Assembly: GCA_001557505.1 (NCBI GenBank)
Contig: LSAX01000009.1
Span: forward strand, 930,001-994,000
Direction of reading: 5' to 3'
Length of the DNA stretch: 64,000 nucleotides
Source of the DNA: Reticulascus tulasneorum
Lineage: Eukaryota; Ascomycota; Sordariomycetes; Glomerellales; Reticulascaceae
The notes below the pieces were generated by a model that had not been told where the DNA came from, ran no database searches, and saw only the letters and a list, made by a program, of their open reading frames with translations. A program made the position numbers and the translations under genes. Numbering within the stretch: the first letter of the stretch is position 1; each line of letters opens with the position of its first letter. Of the stretch, positions 1 to 41,560 are shown piece by piece.

Positions 1-2991
<2,991 letters not shown>

Positions 2992-3494: not shown

Positions 3495-5221
3495 CTACAT
3501 GGCGGCCAGGCCGCGAGATTCAAAGGGCAAAATCAAAACCAGGACGCCTGAGGCGATGAATAGCGCGCCGCTGACGTAGACCGGCACGGCTGTTTGGAGG
3601 TTGGCGAACATGGCGACAATTGGCTGCAGAAATTTCATTAGCTATCTTGAAATGCGTCCAGCCAAGGAGAAGAAAAGGGAGAAGGACGGGGAGTCCGGGT
3701 CCTAGACATACAGCCATGATCCCAAATATTCTGTTGCAGCTTGCGGCCAGCGCGTTTCCCGTCCCGCGCTGCGGCGTGGGGAAGAGCTCGGGCGTGAAGC
3801 TGTAGAGCACGGCGAACATGACGTTGCTGGCGAAGTTGAAGCCGCAGTTCCAGCCCAGAAGAGACTGGCTGTTCAAGGCGGTGGTTGAGCAGTAGAGAAA
3901 CACGCCCGTGAGCACTGTGCTCACCGAGAGTGCGCCTTTCCGACCAATATAGGGCAGCTCAACCAGCCAGCCGCCGAGCAGTGCACCAGGAATGCCCAGC
4001 ACCGCAATGATTAGACTGTTCCGATACGTGAGGTATGTGCTGCCGTCGCCGAAGTCGGCTCCTCTCGAATCCTGGATGAAGGGCAGAAAGGCATTGTAAA
4101 GCGGGTAGGCCAGGCCAATGAAGCCCCATACCACCATGACGATTCCGGTGCTGAGGGCCATTCGACCCGTGGCAAAGAGCACTCGGATGTGGCTGAAGTT
4201 CAATTGCTCGAGGTGTCGCCTCACCGCAGAAGCGGCGTCTATATGTGGCACATAACCGTCGGGCTCGCAGGCTCGCAGGTGGTCGATTGTCAGGTCGCTC
4301 GTTTTCCCATTGCGGCGCGCGACCTCGTGGACGACGCGGACGGCATCCTCGTCCCGGCCCTTGCCGATCAGGTACTTTGGCGATTCGAAAATGGTGAAGA
4401 GGAGAAACCGGATGAGGAACATTATGAGCGTCAGGCCGCCCATGGCGATTGCGAAATACCGCCAGCCCATGTTCTTGCCGCGGGTGCAGTTTTGTTCGTC
4501 CTGTTGGCAGGTGAAATTCCCGAGGAGCGGCCATGCCACTAATGTCGCAATCACCTGGGCAATGGCCCAGTCGATGGAGAGGATGGTGAGCAGATACTGG
4601 TGGCTCGCCGGCAAGAACTCGAGGAAGATGGCAGAGTCCACTGGCAGATTGCCGCCGACGCCGAAGGACCAAAAAGCGTCGAAAACGGCGATGGCGGCGA
4701 AATTGGGCGCGCCGCCGGCAACCAGACCCCAGAGGGCAGTGAGGCCGAGCGTGAGATTGAAGGCCCATTTCCGGCCAAAGATATCGCAGCCGAAGCCCCA
4801 GAAAATGGCGCCGGCGAGCAGGCCGATATTCTGTGAGAGTGTGAGGAACTGCGGCCGCTTGGGGCCGAATTCCCTGAGGACGGGCGTGTAGATCAGCGAC
4901 GTCACGATGGGCCACAGATTGTCGCTGGCCCAGCCGAAGCCGACGACGATGAAGAGCTGCCATTGGTACCATCCCATGCCGATATTTTGAATCTAGCCAT
5001 TCGGTGCAGACTTTTAGCGAAGCACACCTTGAGAGACCAAACTTGCCCGCCTCCGAACTTACCGCGCGATTGAGAACCCTCGCCTTGGCCTCGTACACGG
5101 GATCCAGCGCGCCCTTGGGAATGATGCCCTCGTCATCGATGCCGATGTCGATGCTCTCCAGGCGGCGACGAGCCTCGGCAGGCGTCGAGTCCTTCCCTCC
5201 GCTATCGTCTCCGGTGCCCAT
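3495..5221 (-). CDS. MFS transporter, SVOP/NiaP-like (sugar/organic-acid porter family)
   Basis: Three exons on the minus strand: 5221-5063, 4992-3712 and 3623-3495. They are separated by a 70-bp (GTAAGT..TAG) and an 88-bp (GTATGT..CAG) intron, both phase 0, giving 522 residues. The N-terminal 53 residues are hydrophilic and cytosolic; about 12 membrane segments follow. GFGWASDNLWPI in TM1, GCDIFGRKWAF in the TM2-3 loop (DxxGRK signature) and VGGNLPVDSAIFLEFLPASHQ in TM4 are typical of the SVOP/NiaP branch of MFS porters. ELFPTPQRGTGNA before TM11 is the second family signature. Substrate unknown. The last exon adds the final TM and ends in FESRGLAAM. ATG 5221 is the first ATG in frame and has A at -3. 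Far from, and not obviously linked to, the RiPP-like island. Confidence 0.9.
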
Positions 5222-31530: not shown

Positions 31531-32516
31531 CTAGTAGCGCTTCAATGTAGACAACTGGATTAAAACATCCTTTATCTCTTCGTCCGTCGCCCTCTTCAGC
31601 CCGATCAACTCGTTGGCAACATTCTCCGGCGGGGGATTCGTCTTCGGGTCGAATATGCATTTGCTGAGGAGATCAGCGAAGACAAGTTTGTCTCTTTGTC
31701 CAGCCCTAAAGTTCACCATGCCCCTCTGATAACGTTCCTCATAGCTAGTGCGGATTATGTCGATCTCTGCATTCGGCAGTGCGTCTTTGGTAAGTTGTAG
31801 TGCTCGGTTTTGAGAGAAGCGTATCAGCTCGATGTGAAGGTACTTGTTCTCAGTCTCCTTAGGCCTTTGCAGGGCATTGACTAGCGCATCTCCGAACAAC
31901 TGGCGGCTAGTAACGCCGAACTCAAAATCCGGATATTCGTGCATATAGAAGGTACGCTTGGGAACAGACATCATGGTGTCGTACTCCATGACATACTCCA
32001 ACCATGGCCCGCCGGCGAAGGATGTAAAAGTGATATTTCCTTCTTCTGCAGCCTTCTCAACCATTGCGGCCACATCTGCCTTTCGTTTCATGAATGGAAT
32101 TGCCATCACGGCATCCGTTTGGGGTACAGTGCCCCACTGGGAAGGTATGTATCGTTGTACGCCTGCTGCAATCACTGCATTGAGAACGAGAACATGGTCG
32201 TGGGTCACGCGATCGCCTATGGCGTTCACTACCACGTCACATCCTTCGAGTGCGTGAGTTAGACTGCTCAGCGATGAGTAATCGGCTATGACAATCTTGA
32301 TTGTTGAGGCAAAGGCGGGTTCAATAGTCTTGTGTCTTGTTACGACCCAAACATCAAACTCTGGTTCAGTCGCCAGTGAGTGCACCAGAAATCGGCCCAG
32401 ATTGCCAGTCCCCTAAACAGATCATTAGGGTCACTTTTCCAGATTATTTTCTATGAACAAGCCATGGACTGCTTCTCACTTACCCCTAAGACGGCAATAG
32501 TTTTGGTCTTCGTCAT
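31531..32516 (-). CDS. NmrA/isoflavone-reductase-like NAD(P)H reductase
   Basis: Exons 32516-32484 and 32412-31531 with a 71-bp intron (GTAAGT..TTAG) give 304 residues. The intron falls inside the nucleotide-binding loop: splicing joins MTKTKTIAVLG to GTGNLGRFLVHSL, making the GxGxxG motif. Further marks of the atypical SDR NmrA/isoflavone-reductase-like class are EGCDVVVNAIGD, YIPSQWGT (usual YxPSxFG motif), KRKADVAAMVEKAA (the conserved Lys region) and FAGGPWLEYV. This family includes the reductase of the asperipin-2a RiPP cluster (AprR). The resemblance in kind, plus the location 4.2 kb from a RiPP-like precursor, makes it a candidate tailoring enzyme. A CTCGG-N4-CCGAG palindrome lies about 215 bp before its start. 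Confidence 0.92.
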
Positions 32517-33206: not shown

Positions 33207-34212
33207 TCAATAGGTGGATGGAAGAATTGAAAGTGCACCTCCATCAAGAATGATAACACTTCCGTTGACGTAGGATCCAGCTTTCGACACCAAATAAATT
33301 ACTGTACCAGCGATATCCTAGAATAATTAGGGTCAGTGATGCTCGAGGGAAAGACGTCAAAGAAAACCGACCTCTCGGGATCCCGATCGTCCCCCTGGGA
33401 TGCCTGGCATACCGCCTGGTAAGCTCATGCTAGACCTCATATCTTTGTCAAAATAGCCTGCCGTCATTTCTGTAATGAAAAGGCCTGGTGCAATTGAATT
33501 TGCTCTGATGCCATACTTCGAAAATCCTGTGCTGAGACTCTTCGTGAGATGGATAGCCGCAGCCTTCGAGCTCAGGTAGATATATCCTGGGTCCGCATGC
33601 CGGACAAGTCCAGAATTGCTGCTGATGGTCAAGAACTGGCTTTGAATGTTCCGTTGCCTCCCTGGACTCTCGAGGCTTTTGTTGCCTGAGTCAAGGAGGC
33701 GGAGAAATGCAACAAAAAGGTAATAAACGCCGACCAGGTTTGTGTCAACGACAGTCATGTTTTCGGACTTCTCAGTATTCCAAAGCTGTTCATATATCGC
33801 CTCAATTGTCTCTTCTCCAGCAAGAGACGGAAGTGGGGTCACAGGCCCAAGGAGGCCAGCATTGGCAATCACGCAGTTGACGAAGCGGGTGTGAACAGCA
33901 ATCTGGGCAGCAGCTGAGGCAAGTGAAGACTTCGAGGTGATATCACACTGAACCGGGACGATGCTCTTGTTTTGCTGCTGGGTGTTAGCTTGATAATGAA
34001 GGGTGCCTGGACTGCGTCATTTGCAAAATACACACCGCATTGGCCGCGACGCGCGTGAGAGCCTCCTCGCGGCGTCCTAGGATGAACACTTTTGATGCAC
34101 CGTTGGCATCAAGTGCCATTGCCATCCATTCTCCAAGACCTGAGCCTCCCCCCGTAACGACAAACACCATTCCCTTTACGGAGAACAGGTCTGCGCTGAT
34201 GAAGTTCGCCAT
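33207..34212 (-). CDS. classical short-chain dehydrogenase/reductase
   Basis: Three exons, 34212-34036, 33974-33372 and 33317-33207, with introns of 61 bp (GTGTGT..GCAG) and 54 bp (GTCGGT..CTAG), phase 0 throughout; 296 residues. Motifs: VTGGGSGLGEWMA (TGxxxGxG cofactor loop), LGRR after beta-2, VIANAGLLGP (NAG), ISSNSGLV with the catalytic Ser, and YIYLSSKAAAIHLTKSL containing YxxxK. IAPGLFITEMT (PG motif) and DGGALSI near the C-terminus complete the classical SDR plan. Fungal relatives with the same insert around EQLWNTEKSENM occur in secondary-metabolite clusters. It is transcribed away from the precursor gene, 2.5 kb to its right. Substrate unknown. Confidence 0.92.
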
Positions 34213-34753
34213 CTTGTCCTGCTTGGTCTTGGAAATTAATAAAAAGGCGTGTATGGTATGAAGTTTGTATGATATGCTCAATGTTGGATCAAATATGAGT
34301 GCCTATCGAACAAGAACAAGACATGAAGAGCTCTGTCGGTCTTGTAGCATATATATATTCATGCCATCGACTTCCATTTCACGTACCTAGGGTGTAATGC
34401 CACGTGAGCGCAGACATGTATTCTGAGCACTTTAATCCCATTCGCTCGCAATCGCGCAGAATGAGGTTCAATTTCTCCTCATGTCTTTGTAATCATGCCG
34501 CTTTTGATGTGACGGACTCTTCGGTTGGCATCCTGGCAGCACGAGAGCTGCCATGGACCTCATGACCGGGACCAATTCCAATGATAGGATGAAGTGCAGG
34601 GACTCCGAGCGTTGGAGCAAGAGTTTCGACCAACTAATGCCGTCAGTAAAGCACTGGTAAAGCTTTTCGAATGTGAAGAACGAGGTAAACATATTGGCTA
34701 CCTTACTAAGTAGAAAGAACATGAAATATCGGAGCTCGGAGTGGCGTGCATTA

Positions 34754-34765
34754 CTCGGTGTTCCG
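34754..34765. promoter_or_regulatory. second CTCGGTGTTCCG element
   Basis: Shares CTCGGTGTTCCG with the site at 32732 (also CGG-N4-CCG), about 545 bp upstream of the SDR start at 34212. Two copies in 2 kb, each upstream of a minus-strand oxidoreductase, suggest co-regulation. Unproven. Confidence 0.35.
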
Positions 34766-36751
34766 GGTGCCCCGCGCTAGGTCTCCACACTTCATCTCAG
34801 CTTTTTGACAAACGGCAGTCACTGTTCTTCGCTTCGTCCCGAGGAATCCCAGCCTTGACTAATCAGGAAAGAAAGGACACAATCATTGTACTAGCTGTTC
34901 TGGTTCTGTCCCGTCAACCAAGATATGGCTCTGAAATCGTCGCCTTGATTTGCGTCATACAAACCATGCAGCATTTACATATGCCGAGGCAACCTGGGGT
35001 ATTTGCTAAAGCATTCCTTGATCTGTAATAACTGTAGTGAAGTTACGACTGTTTCCTCAGACTCCCACCATGGCAACGCACATGATCTTTGGGAGTGACG
35101 GTCGCGTCGTAAGCCAACATGCCAAGAATCAGGAGCTTAAATGACGACCGGAAGAACAGAAACAAACACCATAGACGCTGAGTGCCATCCTTTAAAGCCG
35201 GGAATGACTGCTATTTGGGCATTATGAGGCACGAACCCTTTCTCAACTGCAGCAGCCCTTCTACACACGCCCGGCCTCTAATCACGGCTCGCAGACAGAA
35301 TCAACTATATCATCTCGAGATTTCTCTTCAACTAGATTGTTTGTACATAGAAGAAAGGTTATTCTTGACTCAGTCATGGCTTAGCTTAAGTAGCATAACA
35401 GTCTTACTCCCACTGGAGTTTATGTGCCGTTGCAGAATGTAGAAATGTATCCGAATAGAAACCGGTCGTGGGAAATATAGCTGGCGTCGTTCCACCTTGG
35501 CTCTCAGATAAGGAAGCTTATTTGAGCCCTCATACCTTCGGAAATTCCTCCTGCAAGGCAGTCTCACATACAAGAAACCTTGTTTAAGCCCCTGTGTCTT
35601 TTGAAGTTCCCTTGAACAAAGTTTTCTCTCAGAAAAGAGAGTTTTTTGAGCGTTAATATCCTCTCACATCTAGACAAGCAGGAATGCTACAGATATGTCT
35701 TGTGGAACACTGCTTCACAAGACTACCTGCTTGTCGTACTCGGCGTGATCGTTGATGATCACGGCTGTCAATGATCACGGCTGTCAATGGTCACGGCTGA
35801 CATCACTGGAACTGCTGTAAGATACTAGTCATGATGTAGTATGTAATATGCTTGTCTTCTTCTGCCTAAAGTATGTTGTGGCTAGCTATTTATGTGCTAT
35901 TTCCAGCACGTGCCGTGCTGCCCCTGGCTGCCTGTAGCAGTTAGCGCGAAATCATTCAGGTAGCTTGCAGGATATTTGAGGATATAAGTCTTAGGGCTTA
36001 GAATCACTTTATAGCAGGTGTGCTCACCCACTAGTCTTACTACTACTATTCTATTACTATGCTTCAGTCTCAGTATTTGAGTTAAAGGGACCATCTCCCC
36101 CCTATCAAGATCTTCTCTTCTTGAGACACCGTTACAGCTTTGCAATCTCAGACCATGGCAACCCACACTCGTCCCAATAAAGAAGCTGGGCTCCGCCCAT
36201 CCCTGTTGCGGCGAGCCATCCATCGAGCCGAAGTCCCCGCAGTATAGCGTCACATCGGCACGGATGGCAAGGTAACTTTGGCACACCAAGGAGCAACTTT
36301 AACACATTATTGGTGGGCTTATCGCGATAGGAAGGCATGTGTACAGTTTAACACCCCCTGCGAGACTCGACTAAGGTACTCAGAATGACTTATTGTGATA
36401 TATATTGTTGGATAAATGATCGGCAAGTCAAGGTAAAACGCGGATAAGGATCCGTGAATATTTGCTCCTGCCAGAACCGGCGCTTGTTCTTCTTCGTATG
36501 GTTTTACGCAGTGTCGATGATGACAGGACTCGACAGGGTAGTCAGCAGGCACAGACTGGGGGAATTCAGTACCAAGAGAGAAGAAGTGATTCCACCTTAG
36601 CTTATGCCCGGTGCCGAAGATATTAATAATGCTCTCCTTCGCACAATCGATTTGGAACATTCACATCCGCGGGATATGTTACCTCCCTCCCAACTTCCAA
36701 CCAAACTGCAGTCACTTTGATTCCTCGCAATCACCCAACGTAGCTCTAGCA
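34766..36751. other. intergenic region before the RiPP-like precursor
   Basis: 2 kb without a supported gene. It contains the 16-bp tandem repeat at 35755-35802, a pair of related segments (about 35470-35650: TGGGAAATATAG..CAAGGCAGTCTC..TTTGAGC), and the promoter of the precursor gene at its right end. Confidence 0.4.
35755..35802. repeat. three tandem 16-bp units with TGATCA core
   Basis: ATGATCACGGCTGTCA is repeated twice exactly and a third time with three changes (ATGGTCACGGCTGACA). It lies about 950 bp upstream of the precursor gene. Confidence 0.75.
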
Positions 36752-37311
36752 ATGAAGTTCTTCTCTATTATAAGCATCGCTTGTCTGGTGGCTCTGGGTG
36801 CTGCAGCCCCAGTAGCGGGTGACAATGCCGCTGTCGCGGGTAGGATCTACGCTTTTCCTTCACATGTTGAAGCGGATATCTTGTCAACTAACTCTCGAAC
36901 AGACAAGCGTTATCTTCAATACAAAACTGCGCCTGGTATTCCTCCTCCTCCTAAGGGTAAGTAAATACACGCTTTTCATTTCAAATTTTTCCCCCTCGCC
37001 TTGAAGTTCACACTAACTATTACACAGACAAGCGTTATCTTCAATACAAGACTGCGCCTGGTATTCCCCCTCCTCCTAAGGGTAAGTAAATACACGGTTT
37101 TCAATTCCCTTTCTTTCTTTTCTCCCATTGAAGCTCGTATTGACCATCAAACAGACAAGCGTTATCTTCAATACAAAACTGCGCCTGGTACTCCCCCGCC
37201 TAAGAGTAAATACACGCTTTTCCTTCTTTCTTTTCTCGCCTTGAAGTTCATATTAACCATTAAACAGACAAGCGTTATCCTGATACAGATGTGGATGCTA
37301 TTCCATCTTAA
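36752..37311 (+). CDS. secreted multi-core RiPP-like (dikaritin/Kex2-processed repeat) peptide precursor
   Basis: Five exons: 36752-36839, 36903-36956, 37028-37081, 37155-37205 and 37268-37311. The introns are 63, 71, 73 and 62 bp, all phase 1 (each exon ends in one base that joins AC to make an Asp or Asn codon). About 94 residues result. Exon 1 encodes a signal peptide (MKFFSIISIACLVALGAAA) and a short spacer. Exons 2 and 3 each encode one identical unit, DKR then YLQYKTAPGIPPPPK. Exon 4 encodes a variant with Ile to Thr and one Pro fewer. Exon 5 starts NKRY but then diverges and stops. Lys-Arg before each core is a Kex2 protease site. Signal peptide, repeated Tyr-containing cores and an adjacent UstYa gene are the hallmarks of dikaritin-type fungal RiPPs. 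Intron 1 retention is also in frame and gives a 70-residue form ending after core 1. Product and activity unknown. Confidence 0.85.
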
Positions 37312-37500
37312 GGGTACATGCCCGCTTTTCTTATTTTGTCTCGCATTGACGTTCGTACTAACCATTGAACAGATAAGCGTAATCTTCTCCTTATGAAGTA
37401 GCTGTTGCTATCCCTAACAAGTGTGAGACACTTTCCCGTATTCTGAATATGATGTGCAGTCTAACCAATAAATAGAAAGCGTTGCCTTGAACATAAGGCC
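36840..37500 (+). repeat. tandem exon-intron unit array in the precursor gene
   Basis: Units of roughly 100-127 bp, each an intron (beginning GTAAGTAAATACACG in the better copies, ending in CTAAC..ACAG or CCAT..ACAG) plus an exon starting ACAAGCGTTATC. Exon starts fall at 36903, 37028, 37155, 37268, 37373 and about 37474. The first three exons are nearly identical, the fourth diverges, and the last two (ATAAGCGTAATCTT and AAAGCGTTGCCTT) are remnants beyond the stop. Intron sequences are as similar between units as exons, so whole intron+exon units were duplicated. Confidence 0.85.
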
Positions 37501-38358
37501 CCAGTTGATGGAGACGGAAAGACTGCCACAAAGCACCAGACTCTAATGGTTGAAGCTGAATTCCCTATAAACGTGTGTTTTTGCTGGAATCATGGAATGA
37601 GTCTGGTATTATATTGGGAGAAAGCAAAACGTGGAAACCTCGAACTAATGGTAAAATGAATACTCGACAAGTCTTATCAAGGCCCATCCTCGTCGAAGCG
37701 AAATTACAATTAGATACAGTCACTACCTCATGAAATCATCTCTAGGTGAAGGATCCAGTGACTTAAAATTCTAGCTGCAAAGTCCCGACACATGCTGCGC
37801 CCAGCCAGCCAAGCGGCGCCAGTCAGCAAATAGCTAAGATCTGGAGAAACAAGCTTTTTGGTCCTCGGGTCATTAAACTCAATAATTCGTAGCTCTGGTA
37901 CTGCGTGAGGTTTCCTGCTACCTTCTGTTTGGGGAATAACGAATTAGGTTAAAGTAAGGTTGCACTGCAGAAAGGATTCGAGAGGATCATCCGCCGCAAA
38001 TACGCCTGTCAATGCTTATCTTCCAGCGTGCCCAAAAGTTCCTTCACTGTATCCACCGAAAATGCAACCGTAATGGCTTATATGCACAGATGATCCGCTA
38101 CGAGGAGCCCCTCGTAGCTTTCGGGTCGTCAGCACGGCGAAGGTTGCGTCAGGATCAAGCCACTCCTACGAAATTATCTCCACAGCCAATTCAGATTGAT
38201 CACTTTGGCTTGAGTCTTTCGGGCAGCTAGGGAACGCACAGTCGTCTCGCCTGCGTGCGTCATGGTTACTTACGAGCTATTCTTCCCCCCCATTTTGGTT
38301 CATTGCGAGTTTGGCTCCAACACCTTATCCAAGAGACACACGAGAAACCTGAAAGGAG
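37312..38358. other. 3' region of precursor and promoter of UstYa gene
   Basis: The first 190 bp hold two decayed copies of the precursor unit. The rest shows no coding signal and should contain the promoter of the following oxidase gene. Confidence 0.5.
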
Positions 38359-39419
38359 ATGTCTGTCGAATTTGAGCGCAGCAGCCGTTCGGGTTCCCTT
38401 GATATTGAAGCAAGCGACCGGGGTCTTTTGAACAAAGAGAGTTCCGAACGTTTGAGCAATGAAAACAGTCGCTGGCAAACCCCAACTCCCCGTCATCGAT
38501 CGCTATTACTTGTTATTGTGCTACTAGTCTGCACAAATGTGAGTAGTTTGGCTGTCTTGCTCAGAAGAAGCCACTCTTCTGCACCAGGTCCAATATACCC
38601 TAGTATGCTCCGTTACTTTGCATATTTCTTTCTACTCTAGCTGGCCTATACTGACATGGCAAGGACTTGAGGGTGTTGACTCCAGCTATCGTTGGGTTGG
38701 GTTCAATGCCACGTTATTCAGTCAAAGTCACTACGTCGACCCACCCTCACCTCAAGTTGATCAAGCCTGGCTTGATCTGGGCCTTGAAAGTATGTCAACC
38801 TTTCCCTCGCTCAATCAAATTTAATGAAACGACATATTAACTTCAAGTAGATGCTCTGCTTCTAATTCCAACAAGCTTTTCCAGAGAAGCAGACATCTCC
38901 CTGGACCATGTTACCTTGGCCCGAGAAGACGGGGAAAAGGATCTGGTGGTAGGTGTCGAGGCACTTCACCAGCTTCACTGCCTCGTACGTAACATCAAAA
39001 CTCAAGGCCTGGCAACTAGCACAGCGAAACTCATATTGATTAGAATCTCCTTCGCAAATCATTGTACTATAACGCAGAGTACTACCGCGAACTAAAGCAG
39101 AAAGAGTGGGTGGATTCTGAGGTCATCCTCAAGATGCATATCAGTAGGTTCTTCCCAGCTGAGACTATTGTGCCGTAATGTCTGATTGTTGTTAGATCAT
39201 TGCCTGGACATGCTCAGGGAAAGACTTACTTGCACTGCGGACGCCGGATTGTTGCCATATTACTGGGTAGATAATATTCCGGTACCTGACTTCCAGCGAA
39301 ATCACCAGTGCCGAGACTTTGAATCACTCCATAAATGGAGTGACGATGCGAGGGCGGTCTCGAAGCATGATCGGCTTATGCCATTACCAGGTGCAAAGAT
39401 TTTATCGCATATTCCTTAA
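38359..39419 (+). CDS. UstYa/DUF3328 family oxidase
   Basis: Five exons: 38359-38602, 38664-38789, 38851-38984, 39044-39143 and 39196-39419. The four introns are 52-61 bp and all phases agree; 275 residues. It has a Ser/Glu-rich cytosolic N-terminus, a single membrane anchor at about residues 48-68 (SLLLVIVLLVCTN..AVLL), and a lumenal domain with FNATLF (sequon), PPSPQVDQAW (family PPSxxVDxAW) and both diagnostic HxxHC motifs. These are HQLHC (163-167) followed by LNLLRK, and HINHC (200-204) followed by LDMLRERLTC. Both motifs are created or flanked by exon junctions. In ustiloxin-, asperipin- and phomopsin-type pathways UstYa proteins oxidatively cross-link the core peptide, with the His/Cys motifs presumed to bind metal. 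Same strand as the precursor, about 1 kb apart. No UstYb partner is seen in the window. Confidence 0.93.
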
Positions 39420-39697
39420 TTCAGATATATCCAGGTATTCGGCCGGAACTTGTGCATGGCCGTCTACAAACGCAACCACCCTAGCTCTCTGGACTAGAGA
39501 CGCATCTGCGAAGGGCTACACCGTGGCGTTCACTTGATGTCAATCATGTGTCCACGAAGGATTGGTGTCAGTGCCTCAACGGCCGTGGCAGATCTTCGAT
39601 AGGCGATAGCACGGTACATTGCAATTTTCGCGGGTGCATCCCGATGAGCTTGTGTATACACTACAACGAGAATTAATCTACTAAAGCTTAAAGTCTC

Positions 39698-40970
39698 ATG
39701 GTGGACACCATCCTGGCATCGAGACGATACGGCAGTAAGAGAGGATATTATGGGATAGCTGAATTGCTCGTTGTTGGTGATCTAGTCGAAGATTCTGGGC
39801 AGATAAGAAACGGTTTGGGGGTGTTGTATGATGCCTCGGATTGGCTGGCTTGGCATCTGGGGAATGTTGAGTTAAATCAAGCTTGGAAAAGTACCCATAA
39901 CAAAGCAAGATCCGATCTTGACAGGACTGCTAGCTGTCACCAACGAATCTTTCATCTATGAGCCTCCCAAGCCGTCACGTCGTCCGTTTGGGGTATGCTG
40001 CCTCGCATCATGCCTGCAAGCTTGCCCTCTGAGGTTGCCAAAGTCGCCGGGGTGAGTTCGGGTACGGTGCTCGACTCGCTCGGCTTCCTCGCCAATAACT
40101 TACATCCGCTCGATCGAATCTTCCAGCTTTTTGCTTTCCAGGTTATACGTATTAGACACCAGGGCAATATGGAAGAGACAAGGTAACTGCGTAAAATCGG
40201 AGAATCCCTCTATTCTCCAGCCGAACACCTAGAAAGGCTCCACAGCGCGGGCAATGATAAAAGCGCCACTCCGGGCACAGATATTGAGCATAACCAACCC
40301 AAGGCTAATTATCCAACGGAGACAAGCCTTGAGCTGTTGGCGTCAGACAGCTTCTCCAACCCCAAACTAAAAAGTATGGCCAGGCCATGCCCTCCAGTAC
40401 CTGCCGCGCTATACTCTCCTATGAACCTGGTCGTAATCCTGGGTTTCTTGATGCCTGTCGGGCTTGTCGTTGCTGCCGTCATCTGGGAGTATGGTACAGC
40501 CCTAGTCGCCATTATTCTGATCAGCCTCGCGGCCAGCATTGTAGGCTCCGCTGCTCGGTGGAAAAACGCTGATAGGATACAGTGATTCCAGTTATTACAC
40601 TCCTTCCACGTCAGATGGCGGCATGATCATCCGAACACGCCATGGCGCCATACTAGTAATCTGATGCTCCGAGAGCACCGCCTGCGAGCTCTACTCAGGA
40701 GTCGAGGAGTGCCTTTATTTTGTGTCGGGATAGTCCTACCGCAGGCTCATGATCTATAGTGCCGTGCTAATCATGCCGGCCGTTGTCCTGTTCGGTAACT
40801 ATACCTTCAACATGCAGTTGCTCGCTCGTCTACATGTTCCTTAACGTCTTATACTGGAGTCTTGGACTATTACCTCGGCATCCCACTGGGATCTTATCCA
40901 CTATGTGAGCGAGGACATCAACACGGAGGACCCAAAAGGTGGAGAGGGAGTAGAATGATTCCTATGGTAT
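39698..40970 (+). pseudogene. degenerate fungal membrane-protein gene
   Basis: Reads as broken pieces of one protein: MVDTILASRRYGSKRGYYGIAELL.., then a piece with NESFIYEPP. Next, in another frame, LPRIMPASLPSEVAKVAGVSSGTVLDSLG..HPLDRIFQLFAFQVIRIRHQG, SPAEHLERLHSAG, and a hydrophobic part (YSPMNLVVILGFLMPVGLVVAAVIW..AIILISLAASIVG). Past a stop at about 40584 come fragments resembling a CSE..ARELY..EEC motif and two more membrane spans. I recognise this as an uncharacterised ascomycete membrane-protein family. The frame shifts at a G4 run (TTTGGGGTATG, about 39988-39998) and several stops interrupt it. It marks the right border of the RiPP-like island. Confidence 0.65.
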
Positions 40971-41560
40971 GTTAGTGGGCTGATGCCACAGGACGCACAT
41001 TGCTTGCTGCATACAACAATTGAAGTCGGACACATTCGGACCGGCGTACGATGCTAGTATGGCAAGATGTCCGTAAAATTGTGTATTCTCTAGGTACTTT
41101 TATGTTGTGAAATCTAAGTATTTATATTTCAAGTTTGCCATACGAGCAACCACCTGTATAGGAGAAATATACAGGTTGTGTATATACAAAAGTAGAAGAT
41201 AGAAATATTACTTCATGGAAGATATTTGCACTTACCCTAGTAGGTTGGTAAATAGGTATGTAGTTTGCTACGCAGACAGAGCAGACAAAGGAGTCGCATC
41301 AGACGCCTTACCTAATTAGGGAGGCCACATCCCCCCTGGCGAACTCAACCCCAACCCTGAAAGAGCCCCATCTTGCTCCGCAAATCTTCGGTCATCCCTC
41401 GTGCGAAGCTTCTTTAATATCTCACCTGTCTCAACACGACAGCCGACCATCGCGACATTGAATCAGCTTCCTGTAAGCATCTTCCAACCCTTCAACACCC
41501 CAACACTCCGTTCAAAGCCCAGATCTACCGTTCAATCACAACAAAACGAACGTGTCAGCA
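40971..41560. other. intergenic region and promoter
   Basis: AT-rich with TATACA/AGGT iterations (41150-41270). The last 150 bp are C/A-rich, like a 5' leader of the DUF1304 gene. No gene seen. Confidence 0.4.

What the first reader, a model, noticed from the sequence alone, without database searches (positions are those of the whole stretch)
36752..37311. Undescribed RiPP-like precursor built from tandem one-core exons
Seen: a signal peptide exon followed by three exons each encoding DKR plus a Tyr-containing core (YLQYKTAPGIPPPPK twice, one variant), and a diverged fourth. Known: dikaritin-type fungal RiPP precursors have a signal peptide and repeated cores separated by Kex2 Lys-Arg sites. 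Inference: this precursor yields at least three copies of one peptide; the two Tyr (YxxY) and the Pro-rich tail are candidates for cross-linking and trimming. The core resembles none that I recall, and the placement of each core on its own exon is unusual.
Basis: partly seen in the sequence, partly recalled or inferred. Interest (0 to 1): 0.93.

Follow-up and report, generated by a model that had tools for sequence, protein, structure and literature searches.

The report
Fungal peptide precursor, one core per exon
A fungal gene strings together several copies of one small peptide, each copy on its own exon and next to a gene for a peptide-cyclising enzyme, so it probably makes a cyclic natural product of a known general kind from an unusually modular gene.

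Summary
Window 36752-37311 (+) is a five-exon gene model for a 96-residue, apparently secreted precursor: a signal-peptide exon, then exons of 54, 54, 51 and 44 nt. Four GT-AG introns (62-73 nt), all phase 1, fall at each D/N|KR boundary. Exons 2 and 3 differ by 2 silent changes in 54 nt, while the introns after them differ at 19 of 71 aligned sites (P=5e-4); two other pairings are not significant. New here: an intact-looking UstYa (DUF3328) gene lies 1.05 kb downstream (38359-39419, Pfam E=7e-47). Its Lasiosphaeris hirsuta homologue is annotated fused to a related precursor with a matching signal peptide, different cores and an apparently retained intron at the same DKR position. The exon-per-core plan is not unique: a second UstYa-linked precursor in this genome has it (C2:4774802-4775411), while four others have uninterrupted arrays. 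So this is a dikaritin/Kex2-processed-repeat-type RiPP locus with a new core and an unusual gene architecture: a new variant of a known kind, not a new class. Splicing, Kex2 cleavage and cross-linking are inferred, not shown.

The parts
36752..36839 (+). Precursor exon 1: signal peptide and short spacer (MKFFSIISIACLVALGAAAPVAGDNAAVA), ends in phase 1
   Evidence: aligns with the signal region of the L. hirsuta precursor, score 64 against 18.5-21 for three other precursors of this genome, 0 of 5000 shuffles; SignalP not available
36840..36902 (+). Intron 1, 63 nt, GT..AG, phase 1; in frame and stop-free if retained
36903..36956 (+). Exon 2: core 1, (D)KRYLQYKTAPGIPPPPK
36957..37027 (+). Intron 2, 71 nt, phase 1; in-frame stop if retained
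37028..37081 (+). Exon 3: core 2, same peptide; 2 silent differences from exon 2
37082..37154 (+). Intron 3, 73 nt, phase 1; in-frame stops if retained
37155..37205 (+). Exon 4: core 3, variant (D)KRYLQYKTAPGTPPPK
37206..37267 (+). Intron 4, 62 nt, phase 1, weaker donor GTAAAT
37268..37311 (+). Exon 5: diverged last unit (N)KRYPDTDVDAIPS and stop TAA
37312..37410 (+). Decayed further unit: intron-like stretch 77-83% identical to introns 2-4 (ungapped columns), then AT-AAG-CGT-AAT... (KRNLLLMK stop)
37476..37560 (+). Older decayed unit (KRCLEHKAPVDGDGKTATKH...), out of phase; weak resemblance to the ADGEAV-type cores of L. hirsuta
   Evidence: 32 and 27 of 2000 shuffles reach the score (with a first residue supplied by me)
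38359..39419 (+). UstYa (DUF3328) oxidase gene, 5 predicted exons, 276 aa, N-terminal hydrophobic stretch, both HxxHC motifs (HQLHC, HINHC)
31531..32412 (-). NmrA/NAD(P)-binding (isoflavone-reductase-like) gene; possible but unproven cluster member
   Evidence: the family has 66 matches genome-wide
33357..34302 (-). Short-chain dehydrogenase gene, two open pieces; possible but unproven cluster member

Best explanation
The locus is a minimal UstYa-type (dikaritin-like) RiPP locus of a fungus, probably of the Sordariales. The spliced mRNA encodes a secretory precursor with three nearly identical cores and a diverged fourth. In the ER/Golgi the kexin cleaves after each KR, a Kex1-type carboxypeptidase removes the trailing KR, and YLQYKTAPGIPPPPK(D) peptides are released. 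The membrane-anchored UstYa oxidase cross-links a Tyr side chain near the N terminus (most likely within YLQY), and the Pro-rich tail serves as a follower that is later trimmed. The gene grew by tandem duplication of an intron-plus-exon unit, so each full core is a symmetric phase-1 exon that can be gained, lost or skipped without a frame change. Shown: repeat, gene model, constraint on one exon pair, neighbouring UstYa with both motifs, kexin gene in the genome, related precursor-UstYa prediction in another genus, second exon-per-core gene. Inferred: splicing, secretion, cleavage, cross-link, trimming, route of growth.
For: Exact gene model; exon against intron constraint for E2/E3 (P=5.3e-4); repeat not expected by chance; UstYa 1,047 bp downstream, Pfam UstYa E=7.3e-47 over residues 40-252, 52% and 49% identical to Echria macrotheca and Lasiosphaeria hispida proteins over 94% and 100%, both HxxHC motifs present, the corresponding residues lying on helices in the model of homologue P0002; L. 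hirsuta P0004 joins a precursor-like N terminus to a UstYa in one annotated protein; kexin P-domain gene at C17:1680733-1681054; second exon-per-core precursor beside a UstYa. DUF3328 genes are most frequent at the position next to Kex2-processed repeat genes (PMC7329392, passages).
Against: No RNA, protein or metabolite data. Intron 4 has a weak donor (GTAAAT), and intron 1 could be retained. The exon-against-intron difference is not significant for E2/E4 (P=0.14) and E3/E4 (P=0.54), and the second exon-per-core gene shows no excess of exon conservation (exon differences 8, 8, 0 of 81; intron differences 0, 4, 4 of 50). Decayed units downstream could mean that the array, or the whole locus, is degenerating. 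No tyrosinase or S41 peptidase match in the window, so any further tailoring or trimming enzymes lie elsewhere or are not used. The cores of window and L. hirsuta are not significantly alike.
Confidence: 0.78

Rival explanations
1. A Kex2-processed repeat protein whose peptides stay linear (signal, pheromone-like or surface peptide); the UstYa next door acts on something else.
For: Most Kex2-processed repeat proteins have no DUF3328 gene within 15 genes: 22% do (PMC7329392, passages). A proline-rich linear peptide is plausible.
Against: UstYa is the next recognisable gene, on the same strand; my grouping gives 21 UstYa loci in 42.8 Mb, so such closeness by chance is about 0.2-0.3% (own estimate: 21 x 5 kb / 42.8 Mb). 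The L. hirsuta prediction has the pair together. Cores start with Tyr.
Confidence: 0.12
2. A decaying locus: the array is in birth-and-death decline and no longer makes a product.
For: Degenerate units after the stop; short array of 3 good cores; weak donor of intron 4.
Against: Exons 2 and 3 are identical in protein with only silent changes while the introns diverged; the UstYa frame is open over five predicted exons.
Confidence: 0.12
3. Only the first core is used: intron 1 is retained and the frame stops just after exon 2 (...PPPPKGK), the other units being non-coding duplicates.
For: Intron 1 is 63 nt, in frame, stop-free.
Against: Intron 1 is 69-74% alike to the other introns (ungapped columns) and has a branch-site-like motif. 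Silent-only changes in exon 3, though only two, suggest that it is translated.
Confidence: 0.06

Closest known systems
Kex2-processed repeat proteins (KEPs; Umemura 2020, PMC7329392; abstract, passages and Methods section 13 seen)
   Same: Signal peptide-like N terminus, at least 3 tandem repeats of at least 8 aa between KR sites, Tyr in the repeats, DUF3328 neighbour
   Different: Core not seen in my searches; each repeat on its own exon. The words intron, exon and splic do not occur in that paper's main text, which mined annotated proteins.
Ustiloxin / phomopsin (UstA, PhomA with UstYa-type oxidases)
   Same: Tyr is the first residue of the core; UstYa-type oxidase
   Different: Core is YLQY..., not YAIG/YVIG/YVIP; no tyrosinase match in the window; no S41 peptidase match there (that ustiloxin clusters use one is recalled); one UstYa here against 2 and 5
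Asperipin-2a (aprA, aprY, aprT, aprR; PMC6514808, passages)
   Same: Single UstYa homologue; more than one Tyr in the core; an NmrA-family (isoflavone-reductase-like) gene is nearby, as aprR is named
   Different: Core FYYTGY; the NmrA gene is 4.3 kb away beyond an SDR gene and of a common family; no neighbouring transporter identified
Epichloecyclins (GigA, Epichloe; PMC7317419, passages)
   Same: Repeated secreted precursor plus a DUF3328 gene in a small (four-gene) cluster
   Different: GigA has 27-aa repeats and a kexB gene in the cluster; its intron layout could not be checked (Johnson 2015 not held)
L. hirsuta B0H67DRAFT_644266 (P0004)
   Same: Similar signal peptide, precursor directly before UstYa, a DKR-started core, apparent phase-1 intron at the DKR boundary
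   Different: Cores YFEYYSVPAGADGEAVKAAK and DFLFYPVPSGADGEAVQADK, the first preceded by KAAR rather than DKR; known only as a fused protein prediction, no DNA seen

Membership tests
KEP (Umemura 2020 definition) | At least 3 tandem repeats of at least 8 aa between Kex2 sites, none over 100 aa | tested here: met
   Three repeats of 15-16 aa between KR sites in the spliced model; depends on the predicted splicing; the paper's own repeat-scoring program was not run
KEP (Umemura 2020 definition) | ER signal peptide (SignalP) | not testable with these tools
   Hydrophobic N terminus ending AAAPVA by inspection; no SignalP here
Dikaritin | UstYa/DUF3328 gene with the precursor | tested here: met
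Dikaritin | Core contains Tyr next to a Kex2 site | tested here: met
   KRY in all four units
Dikaritin | Side-chain cyclised product | not testable with these tools
   needs LC-MS/MS or NMR
Ustiloxin/phomopsin subgroup | YxI(G/P) core | tested here: not met
   YLQY, YPDT
Ustiloxin/phomopsin subgroup | Tyrosinase gene in the cluster | tested here: not met
   0 of 20 genome-wide PF00264 matches lie on the window's contig
Asperipin-2a subgroup | FYYTGY-type core | tested here: not met
Asperipin-2a subgroup | Isoflavone-reductase-like gene in the cluster | tested here: inconclusive
   NmrA-family gene at 31531-32412, 66 family matches genome-wide; not compared with AprR itself
Asperipin-2a subgroup | Transporter gene (aprT) in the cluster | tested here: inconclusive
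   No Pfam match above cut-off in 34300-36760 and 39420-41500; the genome-wide MFS search scored only 9 of 470 candidates; an MFS-like ORF, by eye, lies at 3520-4977, 32 kb away

The most novel reading that the evidence does not exclude
'One core per exon' is a recurrent gene form of UstYa-linked RiPP precursors in this fungal lineage: an intron-exon unit is the unit of duplication, so cores are traded as symmetric phase-1 exons and alternative splicing may vary how many, or which, cores are made. Surveys that mine predicted proteins would miss such genes because gene callers mis-splice them, as the fused L. hirsuta model suggests.
Probability: 0.4. Interest if true: 0.66.

Novelty: new variant of a known kind. 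Interest (0 to 1): 0.52.

Why it matters
Kex2-processed repeat precursors are abundant and diverse (7878 in 1461 strains, PMC7329392 abstract), so one more core is not a surprise by itself. What matters is the architecture: if cores are exons, core number can evolve by exon duplication and be changed by splicing, and protein-based genome mining may overlook a share of fungal RiPPs. In this one genome 2 of the 6 UstYa-linked repeat precursors that I found have this form. The locus also gives clear masses to look for.

Tried and rejected
Protein searches with the 96-aa precursor: 49 word-sharing candidates, none at E<=10 (only proteins of 0.55-1.75 times its length were candidates). With a 202-aa query of nine tandem cores: one hit, P0025 (E=2.4e-3; only the 7992 candidates sharing most words were scored), rejected as an unrelated Pro-rich protein sharing GPGIPPPP-like repeats. 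No solved structure resembles the UstYa by sequence at E<=1. Genome search with the core pattern at up to 2 mismatches: 18 places, of which only the three cores match with 0 mismatches (one has 1, fourteen have 2); the reversed control gave 32, so the rest is noise. Asperipin-2a membership through the NmrA gene was considered and left open: the family is common. Similarity of window cores to L. hirsuta cores is not significant (165, 183, 835 and 292 of 2000 shuffles reach the score); for the 37476 remnant 32 and 27 of 2000. Exon constraint is significant for one of three pairs only and is not seen in the second gene. Structure: AlphaFold2 model of homologue P0002 with 19 relatives, the window's own protein not included (mean pLDDT 77.9); not taken to a fold search. 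NCBIfam added nothing specific for the three neighbouring reductases. Literature on introns in such precursors: searches (listings) and in-text finds (passages) showed no description of one core per exon. Subscription papers that could hold it are not held, and Nagano 2016 was not tried; so 'not in print' is not established.

Full report
What is there. Window 36752-37311 (+) holds a five-exon gene model. Exon 1 (88 nt) encodes MKFFSIISIACLVALGAAAPVAGDNAAVA. Exons 2 and 3 (54 nt each) encode KRYLQYKTAPGIPPPPK, exon 4 (51 nt) KRYLQYKTAPGTPPPK, exon 5 (44 nt with stop) KRYPDTDVDAIPS. All four introns are GT..AG, 62-73 nt, and split the codon before KR after its first base (phase 1), giving D, D, D and N. 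Each has a branch-site-like motif. Introns 2 and 3 carry in-frame stops, intron 4 shifts the frame, intron 1 is in frame and open, so intron 1 is the one that could be retained without harm to the frame. Two decayed units follow at about 37373 and 37476.

Is it more than chance. Tandem Repeats Finder reports period 125, 3.1 copies, 81% match, score 485. In a + strand scan for KR/RR followed by 10 residues, 2 sites in the window have a later partner that is at least 8 of 10 alike within 600 bases, and 1 of these has two; 100 Markov-1 windows have none. Exons 2 and 3 match at 52 of 54 sites, the two differences being silent (AAA/AAG, CCT/CCC); the introns that follow them match at 52 of 71 aligned sites (Fisher P=5.3e-4). 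For exons 2/4 against introns 2/4 (48 of 51; 52 of 62) and exons 3/4 against introns 3/4 (47 of 51; 54 of 62) the difference is not significant, P=0.14 and 0.54. So protein-level constraint is supported for one pair, not for all. The four introns and the intron-like stretch after exon 5 are alike (69-87% over ungapped columns), as expected if an intron-plus-exon unit was duplicated.

The neighbour. Pfam UstYa (PF11807) finds the window locus among 33 genome-wide matches, which I grouped by hand into 21 loci (one match lies in the window). The spliced model 38359-39419 gives 276 aa, E=7.3e-47 over residues 40-252, with HQLHC and HINHC. In a ten-sequence alignment that contains it the second motif (H201, H204, C205) is invariant and the first nearly so; the exception is P0004, whose gene model lacks that stretch. 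In a 20-sequence alignment of homologues, without P0004 and without the window's protein, the His and Cys of both are invariant, and both lie on helices of the model of homologue P0002. Kexin is encoded in the genome. No tyrosinase or S41 peptidase match lies in the window, and Pfam finds nothing above cut-off in the gaps 34300-36760 and 39420-41500 (two weak matches below cut-off in the latter).

A relative. P0004, a 336-aa prediction from Lasiosphaeris hirsuta, begins with a precursor and continues as UstYa. Its signal region aligns with the window's at 15 identical residues, score 64, against 18.5-21 for three other precursors of this genome and 0 of 5000 shuffles. Between its two cores stand 18 residues (KANQNFRWNSRKELNQKI) that read like a retained 57-nt phase-1 intron ending exactly at DKR; this is inferred from protein letters only. 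Its first core follows KAAR, not DKR. The cores (YFEYYSVPAGADGEAVKAAK, DFLFYPVPSGADGEAVQADK) are not significantly like YLQYKTAPGIPPPPK. What they share by eye is an aromatic-hydrophobic-x-aromatic start (an acid replaces the first aromatic in one) and a later P..G, while the tail is different. That is why I guess that the product is built on the N-terminal YLQY(K) and that the tail is a follower; this is inference.

How common is the architecture. Of the 21 UstYa loci I held stretches of about 6.5 kb or more for 15 (window), about 3 kb for 5 (loci) and none for 1 (C2:3477221). Scans for KR/RR repeats and tandem repeats over these turned up repeat precursors at 6: the window; C2:4774802-4775411, with exons 70, 81, 81, 81 and 68 nt, introns 79, 50, 50 and 50 nt, all phase 1, cores KR-SESYTHTMSDDVAFGSHKDGYEGET; and four with uninterrupted arrays: AEAYGPPLNP at C34, EALYKGDGLYVLRTLAK at C32, a HHKGKKTKKNKR repeat at C35:1171k (less RiPP-like) and ADESYLPM at C15. 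So 2 of 6 have one core per exon; strongly diverged arrays would be missed. In the second gene the intron sits inside the core, in a Tyr codon, not before KR, and the signal peptides are unlike, so the two arrays probably arose independently. That gene shows no excess of exon over intron conservation (exon differences 8, 8 and 0 of 81; intron differences 0, 4 and 4 of 50).

Mechanism. From what is known of ustiloxin, phomopsin and asperipin-2a (PMC6514808, PMC9233826, passages only): secretion, Kex2 cleavage after KR, UstYa-type oxidative cross-linking from a Tyr ring. Applied here: three identical or near-identical cores per precursor, Tyr-1 and Tyr-4 as cross-link candidates, Pro tail removed. 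Each of these steps is inferred.

Verdict. It is a new variant of the dikaritin/KEP kind, with an exon-per-core gene as its notable feature.

Noticed in passing
L048 (C2:4774802-4775411, own genome): Second UstYa-linked precursor with one core per exon (four units; 131-nt period = 81-nt exon + 50-nt intron), intron in the Tyr codon of the core.
   Followed up: yes
L049, L040, L043, L053 (own genome): Four further repeat precursors beside UstYa genes, arrays uninterrupted by introns (AEAYGPPLNP; EALYKGDGLYVLRTLAK; HHKGKKTKKNKR; ADESYLPM).
   Followed up: partly
L045 about 2150-2550, minus strand: Small secreted-looking Tyr/Gly-rich repeat protein (SYGDYGDYGAASYGDY...) with a single KR near its end, close to a UstYa gene; possible single-cleavage precursor.
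   Followed up: no
P0004 (Lasiosphaeris hirsuta B0H67DRAFT_644266): Public protein prediction that appears to fuse two genes, a RiPP precursor and its UstYa, and to retain an intron.
   Followed up: partly
window 39440-40760: Several open stretches, one with a hydrophobic, membrane-like C terminus (MNLVVILGFLMPVGLVVAAVIWEYGTALVAIILISLAASIVGSAARWK), and no Pfam match above cut-off; unannotated gene or remnant just downstream of UstYa.
   Followed up: partly
window 35755-35799: Short tandem array ATGATCACGGCTGTCA, 2.8 copies.
   Followed up: no
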